In this document: one piece after another, positions 1,050-57,287 of the stretch
Numbering within the stretch: position 1 is the stretch's first letter
Layout of the letters: every line of letters begins with the position of its first letter
Assembly (NCBI GenBank): GCA_017438975.1
Contig: JAFRUH010000002.1
Location: 1-64,000 of the forward strand
Origin: Bacteroidales bacterium
GTDB lineage: Bacteria; Bacteroidota; Bacteroidia; Bacteroidales; UBA932
Direction: 5' to 3'
DNA: 64,000 nucleotides
Made by a program: the position numbers and the translations under genes
The notes under the pieces: model-generated
Told to the model about the DNA's origin: nothing
Seen by the model: the letters and a program-made list of their open reading frames with translations, nothing else
Databases searched by the model: none

Positions 1050-1123
1050 AGGGGAATAGAACAAGGGTAGTTCAGCGGTCTCCAAAACCGTCGATGTGGG
1101 TTCGAATCCTGCTTCCCCTGCCA
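1050..1123 (+). tRNA. trnW: tRNA-Trp (anticodon CCA)
   Basis: The cloverleaf folds by eye. The acceptor stem AGGGGAA pairs with TTCCCCT. The D arm is GAAC/GTTC with loop AAGGGTA. The anticodon stem GCGGT/ACCGT has loop CTCCAAA (anticodon CCA), and the T arm GTGGG/CCTGC has loop TTCGAAT. The discriminator is G and the 3' CCA is encoded. A tRNA-Trp between tuf and secE is the usual Bacteroidetes arrangement. Confidence 0.95.
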
Positions 1124-12396: not shown

Positions 12397-13575
12397 ATGA
12401 AAAAGACGATGATGATACTGGCGGTGGTTTTGCTCGCCGCCGTTTCCTGCGACAAGCATACCTATCGGCACCGGGAGAACACGGATCCGGTCGAAACCGT
12501 CCTCAACAAGCCCTCCAACTGGAGCATCCAGTACAAGGGACGGGAAAACTTTACGGAAGCGGACGGATATGTTTCACGCGTCGAGCGGGTCTCGGTCCGC
12601 TGTCCCGGCGCGGACTACTATATCCTCCGGACGATTTCGCCGGACGACCTCAAGGATCTCTATAAGAATGACCTGAAGGCCTTCTTCGAGGAAGAAGCGA
12701 AATACCTCCGCGAAGACGCGTACAATTACAAGGAGAAGGTGACCGACTACTTTTATGTCGAAGAAGTCCAGGACTACCTCCTCGACCGGATGCGGATGGG
12801 CAACTGGCTGATGTTCCTCGTCGGGATGGACGATAACGGCTTCATCACCGGCTCCTATGCCGAGACCTCCGTCAACATCCCGGAAGAAACCCCGACGGAA
12901 AGCTACAACAAGTGGATCGGCGAATGGAACATCGGCGACGGGAAGATCATCTATCCGATCAGCATCGAAAAGGGCGAAGCCAACTATACCTATATCATCC
13001 GGGGCTGGGAAACCGGCAGCTCGATCGACGAAAAGACGGGCGAGCAGATGAACCAGGAATACCTCGAGGCCGAATACGACAACAACAACGGCAACCTCTA
13101 CTTCAAATCCCAGTACCTCGGCACCTATACCGAGAACAATGTCGGAATCGACGAACTCTTCCTCGGAAAGATCAACTATAAGGGGGAAAAGCAGAGTACG
13201 TATGACGGAATCTGGATCATCACTGACGAGGGATTCGACCTTGCCGCCGCAGAGATGAACGAAGGGATTTCCACGGCCACCGTGACCGGCTGCGACGTCA
13301 ATGTCAAACTGGCCGACCATCTTCCCGAAGTCACCCTTCCTTTCATGTACATGCAGTACATCGCCGCATACATGAACGGGAATAATGTCGAATACGCAGA
13401 ATACAACAAGAATGTCCCTGAGATACCGCTGACGATGGACCGGACCCGTTCTTCGGTCAACCGTCCCGCATGGACCCCGAGACCGTCCACCCGCGCCTCC
13501 GTCCACCACGCCCAGGTCCGCGAGCACCGCGACCGCCTGAACCAGACCGCCCGCGGCGCCGTCAGGGCACGATAA
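12397..13575 (+). CDS. Hypothetical lipoprotein with Arg/Pro-rich C-terminal tail
   Basis: Function not recognised. The 392-residue product starts with a lipoprotein signal (lipobox VSC, lipidated Cys18), so it is probably tethered in the envelope. The body is acidic and rich in aromatic residues, with several WxxIGDGKI- and YNNNGNLYF-like strands suggesting a beta-rich fold. From about residue 345 the protein changes character to a strongly basic Arg/Pro/His tail ([20 protein letters not shown] and onwards to the end). The tail may be real, for binding to anionic envelope polymers, or may mark a frameshift. Another frame is also open there, but it too is Arg/Pro-rich and not clearly better. 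It has its own promoter-like box and stands alone before cysS. Confidence 0.7.
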
Positions 13576-13595
13576 AACCCAACAAAAAGAACCCT

Positions 13596-15131
13596 ATGAG
13601 ACCGCTATACCTTACCAATACCCTGTCCCGGAAAAAAGAACTCTTCGTTCCGATCAATCCCGGCCATGTCGGCATGTACGTCTGCGGGCCGACCGTCTAC
13701 GGCGACGCCCATCTCGGACACGCCCGTCCCGGCGTCACGTACGACGTCCTGTTCCGTCTCCTGAAGCACCTCGGCTACAAGGTCCGCTACGTCCGGAACA
13801 TCACGGATGTCGGCCACCTGGAGCACGATGCCGATGAAGGCGAAGACAAGATCGCGAAGAAAGCCAAACTTGAGGATCTGGAGCCGATGGAGGTCGTACA
13901 GACCTATACCGGGCGGTATCACGAGGCGATGCGGAAACTCAACGTCGCTCCCCCGTCGATCGAACCACGCGCTTCCGGGCACATCATCGAGCAGATCGAG
14001 GTCGTGAAGAAGATCCTGGAGACCGGCTACGCCTATATCAGCAACGGATCCGTCTATTTCGACGTAGAGAAATACGACCGGGACTTCCATTACGGCATTC
14101 TCTCCGGCAGGTCCCTCGAATCGACCCTTGAAGGGACGCGCGCCCTGGACGGCCAGAGCGACAAGAAGGCCCCGTACGATTTCGCGATCTGGAAAAAGGC
14201 CGAGCCGGAGCACATCATGCGCTGGCCCTCCCCCTGGGGCGAAGGATTCCCCGGCTGGCACCTCGAGTGCTCGGTCATGGGCGAGAAATACCTCGGCAAG
14301 GAATTCGATATCCATGGGGGCGGAATGGACCTGATGTTCCCGCATCACGAATGCGAGATCGCCCAGAACCAGGCTTCGCGCGGTACGCAGGGGGTCCATT
14401 ACTGGGTCCATAACAACATGATCACGATCGGGGGCCAGAAAATGGGCAAATCCCTCGGGAATTTCATCACCCTGCCCGAACTGTTCGCCGGGGCTCATCC
14501 GAAACTGGAAAAGGCCTATTCCCCGATGACGATCCGTTTCTTCATCTTCCAGGCCCATTACCGGAGCACGCTCGATTTCAGCAACGACGCCCTCCAGGCC
14601 GCGGAAAAAGGGTACAAACGGATCATGCAGGCGTACCGGGACCTCTGCGCCCTCGCCGGGAAGGAGCCCCTCAGCCTGGAATACGGGGAGTTCATCGGAA
14701 CGACCGCCCCGGAGAAGGCGCCGGAAGGAATCAACCCCGAAATCGCCGGCCTCGTCGAGGGGGTCTATGAAGCCCTCTGCGACGATCTCAACACCCCCAT
14801 TGCGATTGCGAAACTCTTCGACGGGGTCCGTCTCGTCAACAATTGCAAGGACAGGAAACTGACGCTCTCTCCGGCGGATCTCGCCGCTCTCCACCGGCTC
14901 TTCGAAGATGTCGTCTGCGGAGTCCTGGGACTCCGGGACGAAGAAGCTGCCGGCGGATCCGGGAAGGCGGAAAAAGCCCTGGAAGGGGTTATGGACCTCG
15001 TTCTGGAAGACAGGCGGAAGGCCCGCGCAGCGAAAGACTGGGCGGAGAGCGACCGCATCCGCGACCTTCTCGCGTCCCTCGGGATTACCGTCAAGGATAC
15101 CAAGGACGGAGCGACCTGGAGTCTCGAATAA
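13596..15131 (+). CDS. cysS: Cysteinyl-tRNA synthetase
   Basis: This class I synthetase (511 residues) charges tRNA-Cys. The zinc-site Cys30 lies in [10 protein letters not shown]. The HIGH-type motif is HLGH at residues 39-42. The other zinc ligands are in WHLECSV and HHECEI. The KMSKS motif appears as KMGKS at residues 282-286. The frame is open further upstream, but that extension is Arg/Pro-rich and overlaps the previous gene. ATG at 13596 gives the conserved start [18 protein letters not shown] large palindromic repeat begins 12 bases after the stop. Confidence 0.96.
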
Positions 15132-15142
15132 CCGATCATCTT

Positions 15143-15263
15143 TTTTCGGAGGAGGGAAAGCGCCCCTGAAACCTATGCCACCCTCGGCACTATAAGAGGG
15201 AGGGGCCCTTCAGGGAGGGGCCGCGAAGCGGCGGTTTCAGGAGCGCTTCCCCTCCCCCGAAAA
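15143..15263. repeat. Palindromic element, copy 1: conserved core with long complementary arms
   Basis: A 31-base left arm (15143-15173) pairs with a 31-base right arm (15233-15263) with three mismatches. All three become G·U pairs in a minus-strand RNA. The arms enclose a 59-base core (15174-15232). The core holds GGGAGGGGCC twice (15198-15207 and 15213-15222), a CCCTC...GAGGG hairpin and a GCCGC-GAA-GCGGC hairpin. The core matches the element at 56239-56297 at 57 of 59 positions, and the inner arm ends GAAACC/GGTTTC are also shared. The outer arms are different. It lies between cysS and xth, ending 16 bases before the xth ATG. On the minus strand it can be read as LKPPLRGPSLKGPSLL then stop, which I regard as non-coding. 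Confidence 0.88.
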
Positions 15264-15279
15264 CGAAAATAGATAGGAT

Positions 15280-16032
15280 ATGAAATTCATTTCGTGGAAT
15301 GTGAACGGCCTGAGGGCCGTGGCGGGCAAGGGCTTCGCCGATATTTTCGTCGAACTCGACGCCGACTTCTTCTGCCTGCAGGAAACCAAGCTGCAGGAGG
15401 GCCAGATCGACATGGAGTTCCCCGGATACCGTTCTTACTGGTGCTACGCCGACAAGAAAGGATACTCGGGAACCGCCATCTACACCAAGCACGACCCCGT
15501 CTCGGTCCGTTACGGAATCGGGGTCGACGAACATGACCACGAAGGACGCGTCATCACGCTCGAGATGCCGGAATTCTTTCTCGTCTGCGCCTATGTCCCG
15601 AACTCCCAGGACGGACTCCGCCGCCTGGACTACCGGATGCAGTGGGAAGAGGACATGCGGACCTACCTGAAGGGACTGGACGCGGTCAAGCCGGTGATCC
15701 TCTGCGGCGACCTGAACGTCGCGCACCAGGAAATCGACATCAAGAATCCCGCTTCCAACCGCCGGAACGCCGGATTCACGGATGAGGAACGGGAAAAATT
15801 CACGACCCTTCTCGGGAGTGGCTTCACCGACAGCTGGCGCTTTTGCCATCCGGACGAGGTGAAGTACTCGTGGTGGTCCTACCGCTTCCGCGCCCGGGAG
15901 AACAACGCCGGCTGGCGCATCGACTACTTCGTCGTTTCCGACCGCCTGCGCCCGCTCATCGCCGGCACGGAAATCCACAATGAAATCTTCGGCTCCGACC
16001 ACTGCCCCGTCGAATTGGACCTGACCCTGTAA
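15280..16032 (+). CDS. xth: Exodeoxyribonuclease III (AP endonuclease)
   Basis: This 250-residue member of the exonuclease/endonuclease/phosphatase superfamily cleaves DNA at abasic sites in base excision repair. Diagnostic segments are MKFISWNVNGLRA at the N terminus, the metal ligand in CLQETKLQ, GDLNVAHQEIDIKNP in the middle, and GSDHCPVELDL at the end. RIDYF lies in the conserved W-RIDY strand. Length is typical. The start lies 16 bases from the end of the palindromic element. The GH51 gene follows after 9 bases and may be cotranscribed. Confidence 0.96.
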   Translation: MKFISWNVNGLRAVAGKGFADIFVELDADFFCLQETKLQEGQIDMEFPGYRSYWCYADKKGYSGTAIYTKHDPVSVRYGIGVDEHDHEGRVITLEMPEFFLVCAYVPNSQDGLRRLDYRMQWEEDMRTYLKGLDAVKPVILCGDLNVAHQEIDIKNPASNRRNAGFTDEEREKFTTLLGSGFTDSWRFCHPDEVKYSWWSYRFRARENNAGWRIDYFVVSDRLRPLIAGTEIHNEIFGSDHCPVELDLTL

Positions 16033-53918: not shown

Positions 53919-54805
53919 TGAAACGCTTCCTTACCCTTATCGCGGCCGCCCTCCTGATCCTCGGCTGCTCCGTGAAACCGGCCGGACAGAGACTCGTCAT
54001 CATCGGCCTGGACGGCCTGGGCTCCGCCTATATGGACACCCTGAAAATCCCGGTCATCCGCGGCCTGATGGCCGAAGGCTCCTACACGCTCCACAAGCGC
54101 TCCGTCCTTCCGTCGGCGAGCGCCATCAACTGGGCCTCGATCTTCAACGGTCTCCCTACCGAAATCCACGGATTCACCCGCTGGAATACGCAGACTCCTG
54201 ATATCCCCGCTCCTTTCGTCCAGGAGAACGGCCTGCCCGTCACCCTGTTCACCCTCTGCCGCCGGGCCAACCCCGGTGCGAAGATCGGTGCGATTTACGA
54301 GTGGAACGGGGTCAAGTACACCCTCGACACCCTGGCCTTCAACGACCGTCTCTGTACGGTGGAAGACGTGATCGATCCCGCCTTTACGACGGAAAAGGTC
54401 GTGTCTTACCTGAAAGAGGAGAAGCCCGATGTCTTCTATGTCCATTATGACTGCCCCGACCACACCGGCCACAAGATTGGCTGGGGGACGCCCGAATATG
54501 CGGCGAAGGTCGAAGAAATGGACGGGTATGTCGGAGAGATCATCCAGGCCCTCAAGGACGCCGGAACCTATGACAATACCATCATCGTCGTCACCTCGGA
54601 TCACGGCGGGAAGGTCAAGAGCCACGGTAAAGCGACCGTCGAGGAGATGGAAGCTCCGTTCGTGGTTGCCGGTCCGGGAATCAAGAAGGGCTATGAGATC
54701 CAGGAGTTTATGATGCAGTACGACGTTGCTCCGACCCTTGCGAAGGTCCTCGGGATTCCGATTCCGGATTACTGGAGGGGACGCCCGATGCCGGTTTCCG
54801 AATAG
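53915..54805 (+). CDS. Type I phosphodiesterase/alkaline phosphatase-superfamily lipoprotein
   Basis: This 296-residue lipoprotein (Cys18) has an alkaline phosphatase fold. Metal ligands are visible in IGLDGLG, DCPDHTGHKIG and VTSDHGGKVKSHG, and the nucleophile region is ASAINWASIFNG. The class hydrolyses phosphodiester, phosphate or sulfate esters in the periplasm. The absence of a Cys/Ser-x-Pro-x-Arg motif argues against a sulfatase. Its start overlaps the second SGNH gene by 4 bases, so the three genes form one unit. The 3' end overlaps the convergent MATE gene by 37 bases. Confidence 0.88.
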   Translation: MMKRFLTLIAAALLILGCSVKPAGQRLVIIGLDGLGSAYMDTLKIPVIRGLMAEGSYTLHKRSVLPSASAINWASIFNGLPTEIHGFTRWNTQTPDIPAPFVQENGLPVTLFTLCRRANPGAKIGAIYEWNGVKYTLDTLAFNDRLCTVEDVIDPAFTTEKVVSYLKEEKPDVFYVHYDCPDHTGHKIGWGTPEYAAKVEEMDGYVGEIIQALKDAGTYDNTIIVVTSDHGGKVKSHGKATVEEMEAPFVVAGPGIKKGYEIQEFMMQYDVAPTLAKVLGIPIPDYWRGRPMPVSE

Positions 54806-56193
54806 ATCCGGCCCGAAGCGGCGGTCAACCAGAGCGTGCGGACCAGCAGGTGCACGAAATAGGCCGCCATCAGATAATGAACCGGCAGGTTCCCGACGAG
54901 GGGGCCTGCCGTTTTCGACAGGAGGATCCAGGTCAGGAAGAAACCGGCGGCCGCGCCCAGCGTGCAGTTCCGCATGGGCCGGGTCCGGGTCGCTCCCGTG
55001 AAGATACCGTCCCATGTAAAGGCCGGACAGCCGATGAGGGGCATCAGCAGTAGCCAGGGCAGGAAGGGGCGGCAGACATCGACCACCGCCTCGTCCGAAG
55101 TCATCATCCGGACCATCGGGACACCGAGGATACCGTACAGGATCATGAACCCGCCGACGATGCTCATGCTCCATGCGAAGGTCGCCCGGATGGTTTTCCG
55201 GACCATCAGAGGGTCCTTCATGCCGATGTATTTCCCCGTGAGGGCCTCTCCCGCATAGGCGAAGCCGTCCGTAAAGTAGGAGAAGATCATCAGGAGTTTC
55301 ATCAGGATCGTGCTCGCGGAGAGGAGAGCGTCCCCGAAACGGGCGGACAGGATCGTGAACCCGATATAGATCGCGATCATGCCGGCCGACCGGATCATCA
55401 GGTCCGCATTCATGGAGAAAAAGCCCCTGGCGTCGATGCGGACCGCGTGCGCGGCGTCCCTGAGCCGGTATTCGTCGAAGACCATCGGGCGGTATTTGAC
55501 GAGGACGACCCCGGCCGAGAAAAGGAATCCGGTCCATTGGGCGATCACGGTTCCGAGGGCGACGCCGTCGAAGCCCATGCCGGCCCCGAACGCGAGCCAG
55601 ATGCTGAGGAAGATGTTGATTCCGTTGACGATGAGGTCCGAGACCATGGCGCTGACCGTGTCCTGCATTCCGATGAACCATCCCTTGAAAGCGAAGAGGC
55701 TGAGGGTGGCCGGAGCCGCCCAGATCCGGATTTCGAAGTATCGTTCGGCGAGGCTGCGGACTTCCGGGGAGCAGTCTACGACGAGGAAGGCGGCCTGGAC
55801 GAAGAGCCACTGGACCATGATGAGGAAGAATCCCGAAAAGAGAGAAATCCAGAGGGCCCGGCTGAATACGTCGGCGCAATCCTTGAGAGCCTTGTCACGG
55901 GCGATGACGTTTCCCGTTTCCCCGGCCTTCCGGTAACGACCGAAGGCCTGGGCGGCGAGTCCGCCGGTTCCGCTCCGGAGGAACTCGAAGTTCCAGTACA
56001 GGAGGTCGAAGAGCATGGAGCCGATGGAAATGCCTCCGATCAGGGCCGCGGTCGTGAGACCTTCGCGGACGGTCCCCGCGCCGAGGTGGCCGACGACGGC
56101 GATGTCGACCATTCCGACGAGCGGGACGGTGATGTTGGCAAGGATGCTGGGCAGGGCCAGCTTCAGTATGTCACGGTTCAGTCCTTTCATCAT
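54769..56193 (-). CDS. MATE-family efflux transporter
   Basis: This 474-residue inner-membrane exporter has 12 predicted helices and the MATE/NorM layout. The N-terminal LALPSILANITVPLVGMVDIAVVGHLG matches the classic start, and a second repeat begins near FFSMNADLMIRSAGMIAIYIGF. It resembles the DinF branch, exporting cationic drugs or metabolites with Na+ or H+. It follows rsgA, separated by the second palindromic element, which ends 12 bases before its ATG. The 3' end overlaps the neighbouring lipoprotein gene. Confidence 0.92.
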   Translation of the reverse strand: MMKGLNRDILKLALPSILANITVPLVGMVDIAVVGHLGAGTVREGLTTAALIGGISIGSMLFDLLYWNFEFLRSGTGGLAAQAFGRYRKAGETGNVIARDKALKDCADVFSRALWISLFSGFFLIMVQWLFVQAAFLVVDCSPEVRSLAERYFEIRIWAAPATLSLFAFKGWFIGMQDTVSAMVSDLIVNGINIFLSIWLAFGAGMGFDGVALGTVIAQWTGFLFSAGVVLVKYRPMVFDEYRLRDAAHAVRIDARGFFSMNADLMIRSAGMIAIYIGFTILSARFGDALLSASTILMKLLMIFSYFTDGFAYAGEALTGKYIGMKDPLMVRKTIRATFAWSMSIVGGFMILYGILGVPMVRMMTSDEAVVDVCRPFLPWLLLMPLIGCPAFTWDGIFTGATRTRPMRNCTLGAAAGFFLTWILLSKTAGPLVGNLPVHYLMAAYFVHLLVRTLWLTAASGRIYSETGIGRPLQ

Positions 56194-56205: not shown

Positions 56206-56330
56206 TGGCGAAGGGGGAAGGGTGGGACCCCGGAAACCGATGCCACCCTCGGCACTATAAGAGGGAGGGGCCCTTTAGGGAGGGGCCGCGAAGCGGCGGT
56301 TTCCGGAGTCTCACCCTTCCCCCTTCGCCA
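56206..56330. repeat. Palindromic element, copy 2: conserved core with long complementary arms
   Basis: A 33-base left arm (56206-56238) pairs with a 33-base right arm (56298-56330) with only two mismatches. The 59-base core (56239-56297) differs from the core of copy 1 at two positions. The outer arms are unrelated to those of copy 1 apart from the inner GAAACC/GGTTTC ends and a general purine-rich character. It occupies the gap between rsgA and the MATE gene, ending 12 bases upstream of the MATE start. Relative to the local direction of transcription it is inverted compared with copy 1. Confidence 0.9.
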
Positions 56331-56345
56331 CACACCGGAAACAGT

Positions 56346-57287
56346 TTATCGGAACTTTTGATCTTCTTCGAGCATGCCGAGGTAGGAGTTGTAGCGCTCG
56401 GCGCTGATCCGTCCCTCCTCGACGGCCTCCTTGACCGCGCACCCGGGCTCGTGCGTATGGGTGCAGGGCGTGAACCGGCAGGACCTGGAAGCCTCGAGCA
56501 TCTCCGGGAAGTACTTGGAAATCTCTTCCTTGTCGAGATCGACGAGACCGAACCCCCGGATGCCAGGGCTGTCGATGACATAGCCGCCGGTAGCGAGCCG
56601 GTACATCTCATAGAGGGAGGTCGTATGCTTACCCTGGAGATGGGCGTCCGAAATCCGGCCGATTTTCGGATCGAGCGACGGGTCCAGCGCCTTGATGAGG
56701 GAGGACTTCCCGACGCCGGACTCCCCCGAGAAAAGGTTGATCCCGCCCTTGCAGGCCTCCCGGATCTCATCGATTCCCTTCCTTTCCGGGATGGATGTCT
56801 CGATGACCCGGTATCCGGCCCCCTCATAGATCGACTTGAAGGCTTCGATTTGCTCCCCGGCTTCATCCCGGTAGAGATCCACCTTGCTCAGCACGATCGT
56901 GACCGGAACTCCATAGACCTCGCAGGTCACGAGGATCCGGTCCAGGAACGGTAGTTTGATCTCCGGAAAATACAGGGAGACAATGATATAGGCCCGGTCG
57001 ACATTGGCCGCGATGATATGGGCCTGGCGGGAAAGGTTCGTGGAACGCCGGATGACGTAATTCGTCCGGGGAAGGATCTCCGTGATCAGGGCAGGCGCCT
57101 CGGAGGCCGCATCGTCGGACTCGAAGCGGACCCGGTCCCCGACCGCGATCGGGTTGGTAATCTCGCTGGCCTTGAGCCGGATCTTGCCCCGCAGCACGGC
57201 CGGGAAGAGATTCCATTCCGGCAGGGCGGAGAGCAGATAATGGCTCCCCGCATTTTTCACAACCGTTGCTTCTCCCTTGACAATCAT
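56346..57287 (-). CDS. rsgA: Ribosome small-subunit-dependent GTPase A
   Basis: This 313-residue circularly permuted GTPase checks 30S maturation. An N-terminal OB domain (about residues 1-70) is followed by the G4 motif VLSKVDLY, the P-loop GESGVGKSSLI and the G3 motif DSPGIRGFG. The C-terminal zinc knuckle is around SCRFTPCTHTHEPGCAV. A -7-like TAATTTTG ends only 4 bases before the ATG, so the message may be leaderless. It is divergent from the polyprenyl synthase gene. Confidence 0.96.
   Translation of the reverse strand: MIVKGEATVVKNAGSHYLLSALPEWNLFPAVLRGKIRLKASEITNPIAVGDRVRFESDDAASEAPALITEILPRTNYVIRRSTNLSRQAHIIAANVDRAYIIVSLYFPEIKLPFLDRILVTCEVYGVPVTIVLSKVDLYRDEAGEQIEAFKSIYEGAGYRVIETSIPERKGIDEIREACKGGINLFSGESGVGKSSLIKALDPSLDPKIGRISDAHLQGKHTTSLYEMYRLATGGYVIDSPGIRGFGLVDLDKEEISKYFPEMLEASRSCRFTPCTHTHEPGCAVKEAVEEGRISAERYNSYLGMLEEDQKFR

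What the first reader, a model, noticed from the sequence alone, without database searches (positions are those of the whole stretch)
15143..15263. Two intergenic elements share a 59-base core but carry copy-specific complementary arms
Seen directly: the core at 15174-15232 equals the core at 56239-56297 at 57 of 59 bases. The flanking arms (31 bases here, 33 bases in the other copy) differ between copies apart from the inner GAAACC/GGTTTC. Within each copy the left and right arms are still complementary with only 2-3 mismatches. Ordinary dispersed repeats conserve arms and core together. A conserved loop with freely changing but self-matched arms implies selection on pairing, or a mechanism that copies one arm into the other. 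Inference: a REP/MITE-like or structured-RNA family not obviously matching a named class, possibly moved by a transposase encoded elsewhere.
Basis: seen in the sequence. Interest (0 to 1): 0.78.

Follow-up and report, generated by a model that had tools for sequence, protein, structure and literature searches.

The report
Palindromic repeats with flipping conserved caps
Some gut bacteria carry dozens of copies of a short hairpin-forming DNA element whose tip is conserved while its stem differs from site to site yet stays self-matched; the tip lies in opposite directions at many matching sites of two species, and some copies sit in frame inside housekeeping genes.

Summary
Observation confirmed and extended. 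Both window copies belong to a dispersed family: 31 strong copies here and 31 in the closest held relative; matches in 54 of 249 genomes of the same family, 8 of 25 genera, none in 24 genomes from 24 other families of the order. Each copy is a hairpin-rich cap (median 65 nt, range 34-117) on a stem of about 30 bp. Stems differ between copies but stay self-matched: 84% of the first 20 positions, ungapped, nothing excluded. They share a purine-then-pyrimidine pattern. At 21 orthologous occupied sites the cap is inverted in 9; in 7 of these it is still the closest or second-closest of 30 caps. Paired stem changes include transversions, and coding strands show no wobble excess. This favours a DNA copying process, hairpin template switching, over RNA selection. 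Copies sit mostly at gene 3' ends or in frame inside genes such as rsmH, ribF, trmB, murE and truB, recalling Rickettsia palindromic elements. The mover is unknown; a RAYT link is not supported. New variant of a known kind.

The parts
15143..15173 (+). left arm of copy 1 (31 nt, purine-rich outside, pyrimidine-rich inside, ends GAAACC)
15174..15232 (+). cap of copy 1: P2 15174-15192 with loop ACCCTC; joint TAAGAGGGAGGGG 15193-15205; P3 15206-15215; joint AGGGG 15216-15220; P4 15221-15232 with C(GAA)G loop
15233..15263 (+). right arm of copy 1, 28 of 31 complementary to the left arm
13470..15131 (+). cysS (cysteinyl-tRNA synthetase); copy 1 starts 11 nt after its stop
15280..16032 (+). exodeoxyribonuclease III (Exo_endo_phos), downstream of copy 1
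56206..56239 (+). left arm of copy 2 (34 nt)
56240..56296 (+). cap of copy 2; at the orthologous site of genome G119 this cap lies in the opposite orientation between nearly the same arms (37 of 44 outer arm positions identical)
56297..56330 (+). right arm of copy 2, 32 of 34 complementary
54769..56193 (-). MatE efflux protein gene beside copy 2
56346..57287 (-). rsgA (GTPase); copy 2 lies just after its stop

Best explanation
The two copies are members of a dispersed family of about 120-nt palindromic elements, originally mobile, in one Bacteroidales family. The element is a conserved hairpin-rich cap on a long stem (shown). It inserts at gene 3' ends and in frame in tolerant loops of housekeeping proteins (shown by occupied against empty orthologues). 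After insertion the stem is repeatedly rewritten: when the single strand folds into the long hairpin during replication, the polymerase switches template between the arms, so a change in one arm is copied into the other and the cap is sometimes copied out inverted. This gives arms that differ between sites, stay self-matched, and carry the cap in either orientation (pattern shown, mechanism inferred). Conservation of the cap beside drifting arms implies that the cap carries the selected signal, probably as folded single-stranded DNA (inferred from its presence in both orientations and from C(GNA)G loops). The enzyme that makes new copies is not identified.
For: 31 and 31 strong copies in two genomes. 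21 orthologous occupied sites, cap inverted in 9 (20 of the 21 re-checked by script and L138/L128 by its cap and flank counts); all 9 are among the 18 pairs outside genes. In 15 of 19 pairs the orthologous cap is the closest or second-closest of 30 (ties counted in its favour), including 7 of the 9 inverted pairs; outer-arm identity of inverted pairs against 911 non-orthologous pairs: L003/L101 37 of 44 (none reach it), L014/L111 33 (2 reach it), L015/L093 31 (12). Gapped comparison of arms: in the 9 pairs with clearly related arms 27 positions changed on both sides and still paired (11 transitions, 16 transversions), 13 unpaired in one species, 2 in both. Mismatches show no wobble excess on coding strands (13 G-T, 11 A-C). 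Empty orthologues: L016 in G119, L103 in G000, murE, trmB, ribF. P2 covaries: 130 of 135 standard at each of two pairs, shuffle maxima 97 and 89, a control that ignores relatedness. Template switching that makes multiple compensatory changes and fully inverted loops is described in PMC8794818 (passages read).
Against: No inversion or arm copying was seen in action; flanks of orthologous sites are 76-92% identical, so single events are not resolved. For 6 of the 9 inverted pairs (L001, L006, L011, L013, L029, L030) ungapped arm identity is not beyond 98% of the null, nor is it for L002, L007, L017 and L024 among unflipped pairs; L001/L061 and L013 caps rank 18 and 6 of 30, so those sites may be independent insertions or replacements. 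G-T mismatches exceed A-C over all arms (42 against 26). The shared purine/pyrimidine pattern is not predicted by template switching alone. Arms were delimited by their own pairing, which raises pairing figures. Genomes are metagenome assemblies.
Confidence: 0.6

Rival explanations
1. Structured RNA at gene ends (terminator or mRNA stabiliser): selection on RNA pairing keeps arms matched through two-step compensatory changes.
For: Copies hug 3' ends: by a home-made gene caller G000 has 12 convergent, 13 tandem, 0 divergent of 25 with two neighbours; G119 15, 10, 0 of 25; window gaps of 20 nt or more are 15 tandem, 3 divergent, 1 convergent of 19. Cap helices covary. G-T mismatches 42 against A-C 26 in cap orientation.
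Against: Cap orientation flips between species (9 of 21); long open frames hold caps in both orientations (28 sense, 24 antisense of 52); no wobble excess on coding strands; transversion pair changes; 4 of 50 intergenic copies in the wider set are divergent; at one site an ordinary hairpin with a T run lies beside the element (L133).
Confidence: 0.15
2. Invertons: a site-specific recombinase flips the cap at the inner GAAACC/GGTTTC repeats; arms are kept matched by another process.
For: Inverted repeats flank the cap; invertible segments are reported in Bacteroidales (PMC8748976 and others, search listing only).
Against: The inner repeat is short and not conserved in other species (GTGAC, CAGAC, GGACC); it does not explain arm rewriting. 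Recombinase genes were not searched.
Confidence: 0.1
3. Fold-back insertion: only the cap moves, and one arm of each copy is host flank while the other is an inverted copy made at insertion.
For: murE: the left arm aligns colinearly with 13 native codons and the insert is 99 nt, cap plus right arm; L016: the outer arm end resembles the host flank; trmB of G173 holds the left arm alone.
Against: trmB G000 against G119: both arms are extra. The G173 case is equally a deletion between GAAAA repeats, since G088 and G093 are occupied with the same arms. The murE loop varies in length between species. Arms at unrelated sites share a purine/pyrimidine pattern. L103: no arm seen by eye in the empty site.
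Confidence: 0.12
4. The cap inserted into loops of pre-existing terminator hairpins.
For: One site in G119 holds a similar hairpin without cap (L148:7290-7325, loop GCAC).
Against: Long capless hairpins are rare: 2 in 191 kb and 2 in 136 kb, one of them this site; the empty sites of L016 and L103 show no long hairpin by eye; copies lie in genes. The capless hairpin keeps the GAAACC end, so it is more likely a relict.
Confidence: 0.03

Closest known systems
Rickettsia palindromic elements (RPE)
   Same: Palindromic units of about 150 nt, many copies, inserted in frame within unrelated genes (described in passages read of PMC10969869 and PMC3733652).
   Different: Here arms are site-specific and only the cap is well conserved; caps flip; most copies in the two main genomes are intergenic at 3' ends; different phylum. 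Homology to any RPE family was not tested.
Template-switch mutations at hairpins (quasi-palindrome correction)
   Same: Multiple compensatory changes and inverted loops in stems (PMC8794818, passages read).
MITEs / ERIC-type intergenic repeats
   Same: Short, non-coding, dispersed, inverted ends.
   Different: Terminal repeats of MITEs are conserved between copies (recalled); here they are not. No parent transposon was found, but only Y1_Tnp was searched.
REP elements with RAYT transposases
   Same: Dispersed palindromes near gene ends; RAYT-like genes are present in the genome.
   Different: REPs are 20-40 bp palindromes (PMC3733652, abstract); the RAYT-like gene beside copy L139 is flanked by its own, different hairpin.

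Membership tests
Rickettsia palindromic elements | in-frame insertion in conserved protein genes | tested here: met
   Pfam or homologue matches on both sides of or across the element in ribF, trmB, murE, rsmH, truB, mtaB-like, rsmA and others
Rickettsia palindromic elements | whole repeat, arms included, conserved within a family (recalled) | tested here: not met
   arms copy-specific; only cap and purine/pyrimidine pattern shared
Rickettsia palindromic elements | sequence homology to a described RPE | not tested
   no RPE sequence was fetched
MITE | conserved terminal inverted repeats | tested here: not met
MITE | target-site duplication | tested here: inconclusive
   empty orthologues too diverged; possible ACCC at L016 and GAAAA at trmB
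MITE | related transposase or full-length parent | not tested
   only Y1_Tnp was searched
REP/RAYT | 20-40 bp single hairpin | tested here: not met
   about 120 nt, four helices
REP/RAYT | the same palindrome flanks the RAYT gene | tested here: not met
   by motif a RAYT-like gene was located in 2 of the 11 loci inspected: L139 (own hairpin on both sides; the cap is about 300 nt away, inside trmB) and L193 (no cap in 8 kb)
Rfam RNA families | match at gathering score | tested here: not met
   window at gathering score, only a tRNA; 5 loci to E 1, 4 hits, all far below gathering score
Hairpin template-switch mutation | multiple compensatory changes and loop inversion at one hairpin | tested here: met
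   pattern only; events not observed
Invertons | both orientations within one population, dedicated recombinase | not testable with these tools
   one genome per species, no reads

The most novel reading that the evidence does not exclude
The mobile unit is only the cap, acting as folded single-stranded DNA: each insertion builds its own stem by fold-back copying of 25-30 nt of host flank, and the stem is afterwards rewritten and the cap flipped by the same fold-back synthesis. This would be a self-stemming mobile element that can pass through coding genes in frame.
Probability: 0.13. Interest if true: 0.9.

Novelty: new variant of a known kind. Interest (0 to 1): 0.72.

Why it matters
It separates the conserved tip from the free stem of a palindromic repeat and so gives dozens of replicate hairpins per genome in which arm rewriting and loop inversion can be measured; this makes template switching as a maintainer of long stems directly testable. 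It also shows in-frame palindromic insertions in housekeeping genes in Bacteroidales, far from Rickettsia, and warns that covariation alone does not prove RNA function.

Tried and rejected
Pre-existing terminator hairpins as targets: rejected. RAYT as mover: Y1_Tnp matches occur in 19 of 22 cap-bearing and 8 of 15 cap-free genus genomes (counted by eye), a weak association confounded by completeness; the RAYT-like gene in L139 has its own hairpin. Self-complementarity within each arm: z 3.4 in two genomes but -1.6 in the wider set, dropped. Rfam: weak hits only. Viral contigs: 0 matches to two patterns. Fold-back insertion as the general rule: mixed. Of 8 predicted counterpart stretches fetched, six aligned and two (L005, L126) did not; of the six, L019 aligned on one side and L023 with a large rearrangement. 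Naming the window's genome: I first took it for RUG253 from a contig length equal to that of contig C8; a check showed that the RUG253 locus L208 matches genome G173 and that L274 shares no 24-mer with the window, so that name is withdrawn. Literature: searches list no description of this family; only open-licence papers are held. Structure prediction was not used.

Rows dropped or mended: G119 site L128 failed arm parsing, leaving 61 parsed elements. One element at a contig end was skipped; of the 82 parsed there, 4 are G119 copies again, leaving 78 from 75 loci. Arms scoring under 18 were left out. Arms under 80% paired without gaps were left out of the mismatch counts: 45 of 139 elements (one search is the same count with the 4 duplicates). 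Pairs L009/L123 and L138/L128 were not in the 19 pairs; one search was ungapped and is superseded, which leaves out L018 (identical arms), L009 and L138. In one search the automatic caller counted L124 and L125, which lie in genes, as tandem and convergent, and 6 copies as edge.

Full report
The observation. Both fold far better than shuffles on either strand. Copy 1 lies between cysS and the exonuclease III gene, copy 2 between rsgA and a MatE gene.

The family. blastn in the whole genome gave 33 matches at E 2.7e-4 or better, two elements being split in two; a covariance model of 20 caps found 31 strong matches here and 31 in G119, the closest genome by exonuclease III among the 151 searched. 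Among relatives, 22 of 37 genomes of the genus and 0 of 24 genomes from 24 other families of the order had matches at 1e-6. Across the family the count is 54 of 249 genomes in 8 of 25 genera, a lower bound because of strict filters. The genus may be Cryptobacteroides; that is recall, not tested. No viral contig matched two patterns.

Anatomy. In the orientation of copy 1: left arm; P2; loop ACCCTC; joint TAAGAGGGAGGGG; P3; joint AGGGG; P4; right arm. Of 135 distinct caps with an intact loop, the two outer P2 pairs are standard in 130 each, against shuffle maxima of 97 and 89; the control ignores relatedness. P3 has 80 sequence variants, 67 of them paired to the loop or for 5 bp; P4 also shows many paired variants, not tested by shuffling. 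P4 loops are C(GNA)G in 91 of 124 caps parsed, of 139, a type recalled as very stable in DNA. The CCCTC loop and GAGGG joint could pair as a pseudoknot; they did not vary in the 20 aligned caps, so covariation cannot test this. Caps are 34-117 nt, median 65; parsed arms have medians of 30 or 31 nt, shortest 9. Position by position, pairing is 0.71-1.00 over the first 26 positions from the cap and falls to background near 30 (59 elements). All 78 distinct elements parsed from other genomes have arms (score 12.2 or more; 73 of 78 at 18 or more). Over all 139 elements 2337 of 2780 of the first 20 positions pair without gaps; over the 94 with at least 80% ungapped pairing, 2277 of 2394. Arms are copy-specific but keep a purine-rich outer and pyrimidine-rich inner half. 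An exception to copy-specificity: genome G014 has two copies 209 nt apart with the same arm sequence as far as printed, apparently a tandem duplication.

Orthologous sites. Flank alignment gave 21 sites occupied in both G000 and G119 (L009 matches closely on one flank). The cap lies the other way round in 9 (L001, L003, L006, L011, L013, L014, L015, L029, L030) and the same way in 12 (re-checked). The 9 are all outside genes (9 of 18); 0 of 3 in-gene pairs are flipped. In-place inversion rather than replacement is supported where cap and arms are inherited: the cap is rank 1 or 2 of 30 in 15 of 19 pairs and in 7 of the 9 flipped ones; arm identity beats all of 911 non-orthologous pairs for L003/L101, which is window copy 2, and nearly all for L014 and L015. 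In the other six flipped pairs arm identity alone does not exclude unrelated arms. Window copy 1 is a weak case: its G119 counterpart has another cap subtype (rank 18 of 30) and may be a separate insertion. With gaps allowed, the 9 pairs with clearly related arms show 193 unchanged pairs, 27 changed on both sides and still paired (11 transitions, 16 transversions), 13 unpaired in one species and 2 in both; over 18 pairs, some with doubtful arm homology, 341, 90 (35 and 55), 33 and 5. Mismatches over the 94 arms are G-T 42, A-C 26, other 49; on the coding strand of 34 in-frame copies G-T 13, A-C 11, other 22. RNA selection through wobble intermediates should leave a strand-specific G-T excess and few transversions; a DNA copying step needs neither. 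The 42 to 26 excess in cap orientation is the result least in line with my reading.

Places. By a home-made gene caller, 25 copies with two neighbours in G000 are 12 convergent and 13 tandem, in G119 15 and 10; none is divergent. In the wider set of 82 the count is 33 tandem, 13 convergent, 4 divergent, 28 inside and 4 at edges. Copies lie in frame inside rsmH (both species), trmB (G000), murE and ribF (G119), a hisD-hisC joined frame, and in other species ribF, trmB, truB, truA, aroB, a YggS-like gene, an MtaB-like gene, rsmA and more (gene names are mine from Pfam matches and recall). 15 of 61 and 37 of 78 elements lie in a long open frame; not all need be real genes. All 20 proteins sent to Pfam had a match. 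Solved relatives put the extra residues between conserved blocks: 51 against 4 in RsmH, 59 against 15 in RibF. Open frames hold the cap in both orientations (28 sense, 24 antisense of 52). The same loops of ribF and trmB carry it in opposite orientations in different species, truB probably too (only L219 was sent to Pfam); these may be flips or repeated insertions.

Insertion. Empty orthologues show that elements arrived by insertion: L016 in G119, L103 in G000, murE, ribF and trmB; in five further relatives (L062-L066) the 230 nt before xth show no element by eye. Whether arms come with the element or are made from host flank is unsettled: murE and L016 hint at the latter, trmB and L103 at the former. 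G173 trmB keeps one arm without cap and second arm; as G088 and G093 are occupied with nearly the same arms, deletion is the simpler reading. G119 has a capless hairpin at the L012 site.

Mechanism. I prefer an originally mobile palindrome whose stem is later rewritten, and cap flipped, by template switching within the hairpin. PMC8794818 (passages read) reports multiple compensatory changes and inverted loops of this kind in rRNA genes, so the process is known; a repeat family showing it was not found in the searches made. The mover is unknown. RAYT-like genes occur with and without the element, and the one near L139 is flanked by its own hairpin.

Limits. Genomes are assemblies of metagenomes; no reads were seen. 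One genome per species means that single events are not dated. Selection on RNA and recombinase-driven flipping are not excluded.

Noticed in passing
L139:3174-4139 (-), flanks within about 150 nt: RAYT-like gene (Y1_Tnp just below cut-off) flanked on both sides by its own hairpin CCTCTGGT-GAGTTTTA-ACCAGAGG, unrelated to the cap.
   Followed up: partly
L138:1684-4152 (-): hisD and hisC read as one open frame with an element as the linker between them; L128 in G119 is orthologous and also occupied.
   Followed up: partly
L148:7290-7325: Capless relict: a stem like that of the L012 element but with a 4-nt loop GCAC.
   Followed up: partly
L022, L023, L119, L120, L123 (P3 of the cap): P3 carries a shared longer hairpin insert with a core near GAATCTCTGATTC; perhaps a nested element.
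   Followed up: no
murE loop in L341-L368: The MurE loop that holds the element in G119 is very variable in length between species and may host other repeats.
   Followed up: no
upstream of xth in L062, L068, L078; inside ribF of L322: Another short repeat (GTCATTCTGAACGAA..GAAGAATCT type), once in frame in ribF.
   Followed up: no
L199:4293 and 4502: Two copies 209 nt apart with the same arm sequence as far as printed in genome G014, apparently a tandem duplication.
   Followed up: no
window 1050-1120 (+): tRNA gene, the sole Rfam gathering-level hit in the window.
   Followed up: no
L135:2602-2639 and L153:10053-10088: Two terminator-like long hairpins in G000 with similar stems (GGCCTTTGTCC), perhaps another small repeat family.
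   Followed up: no
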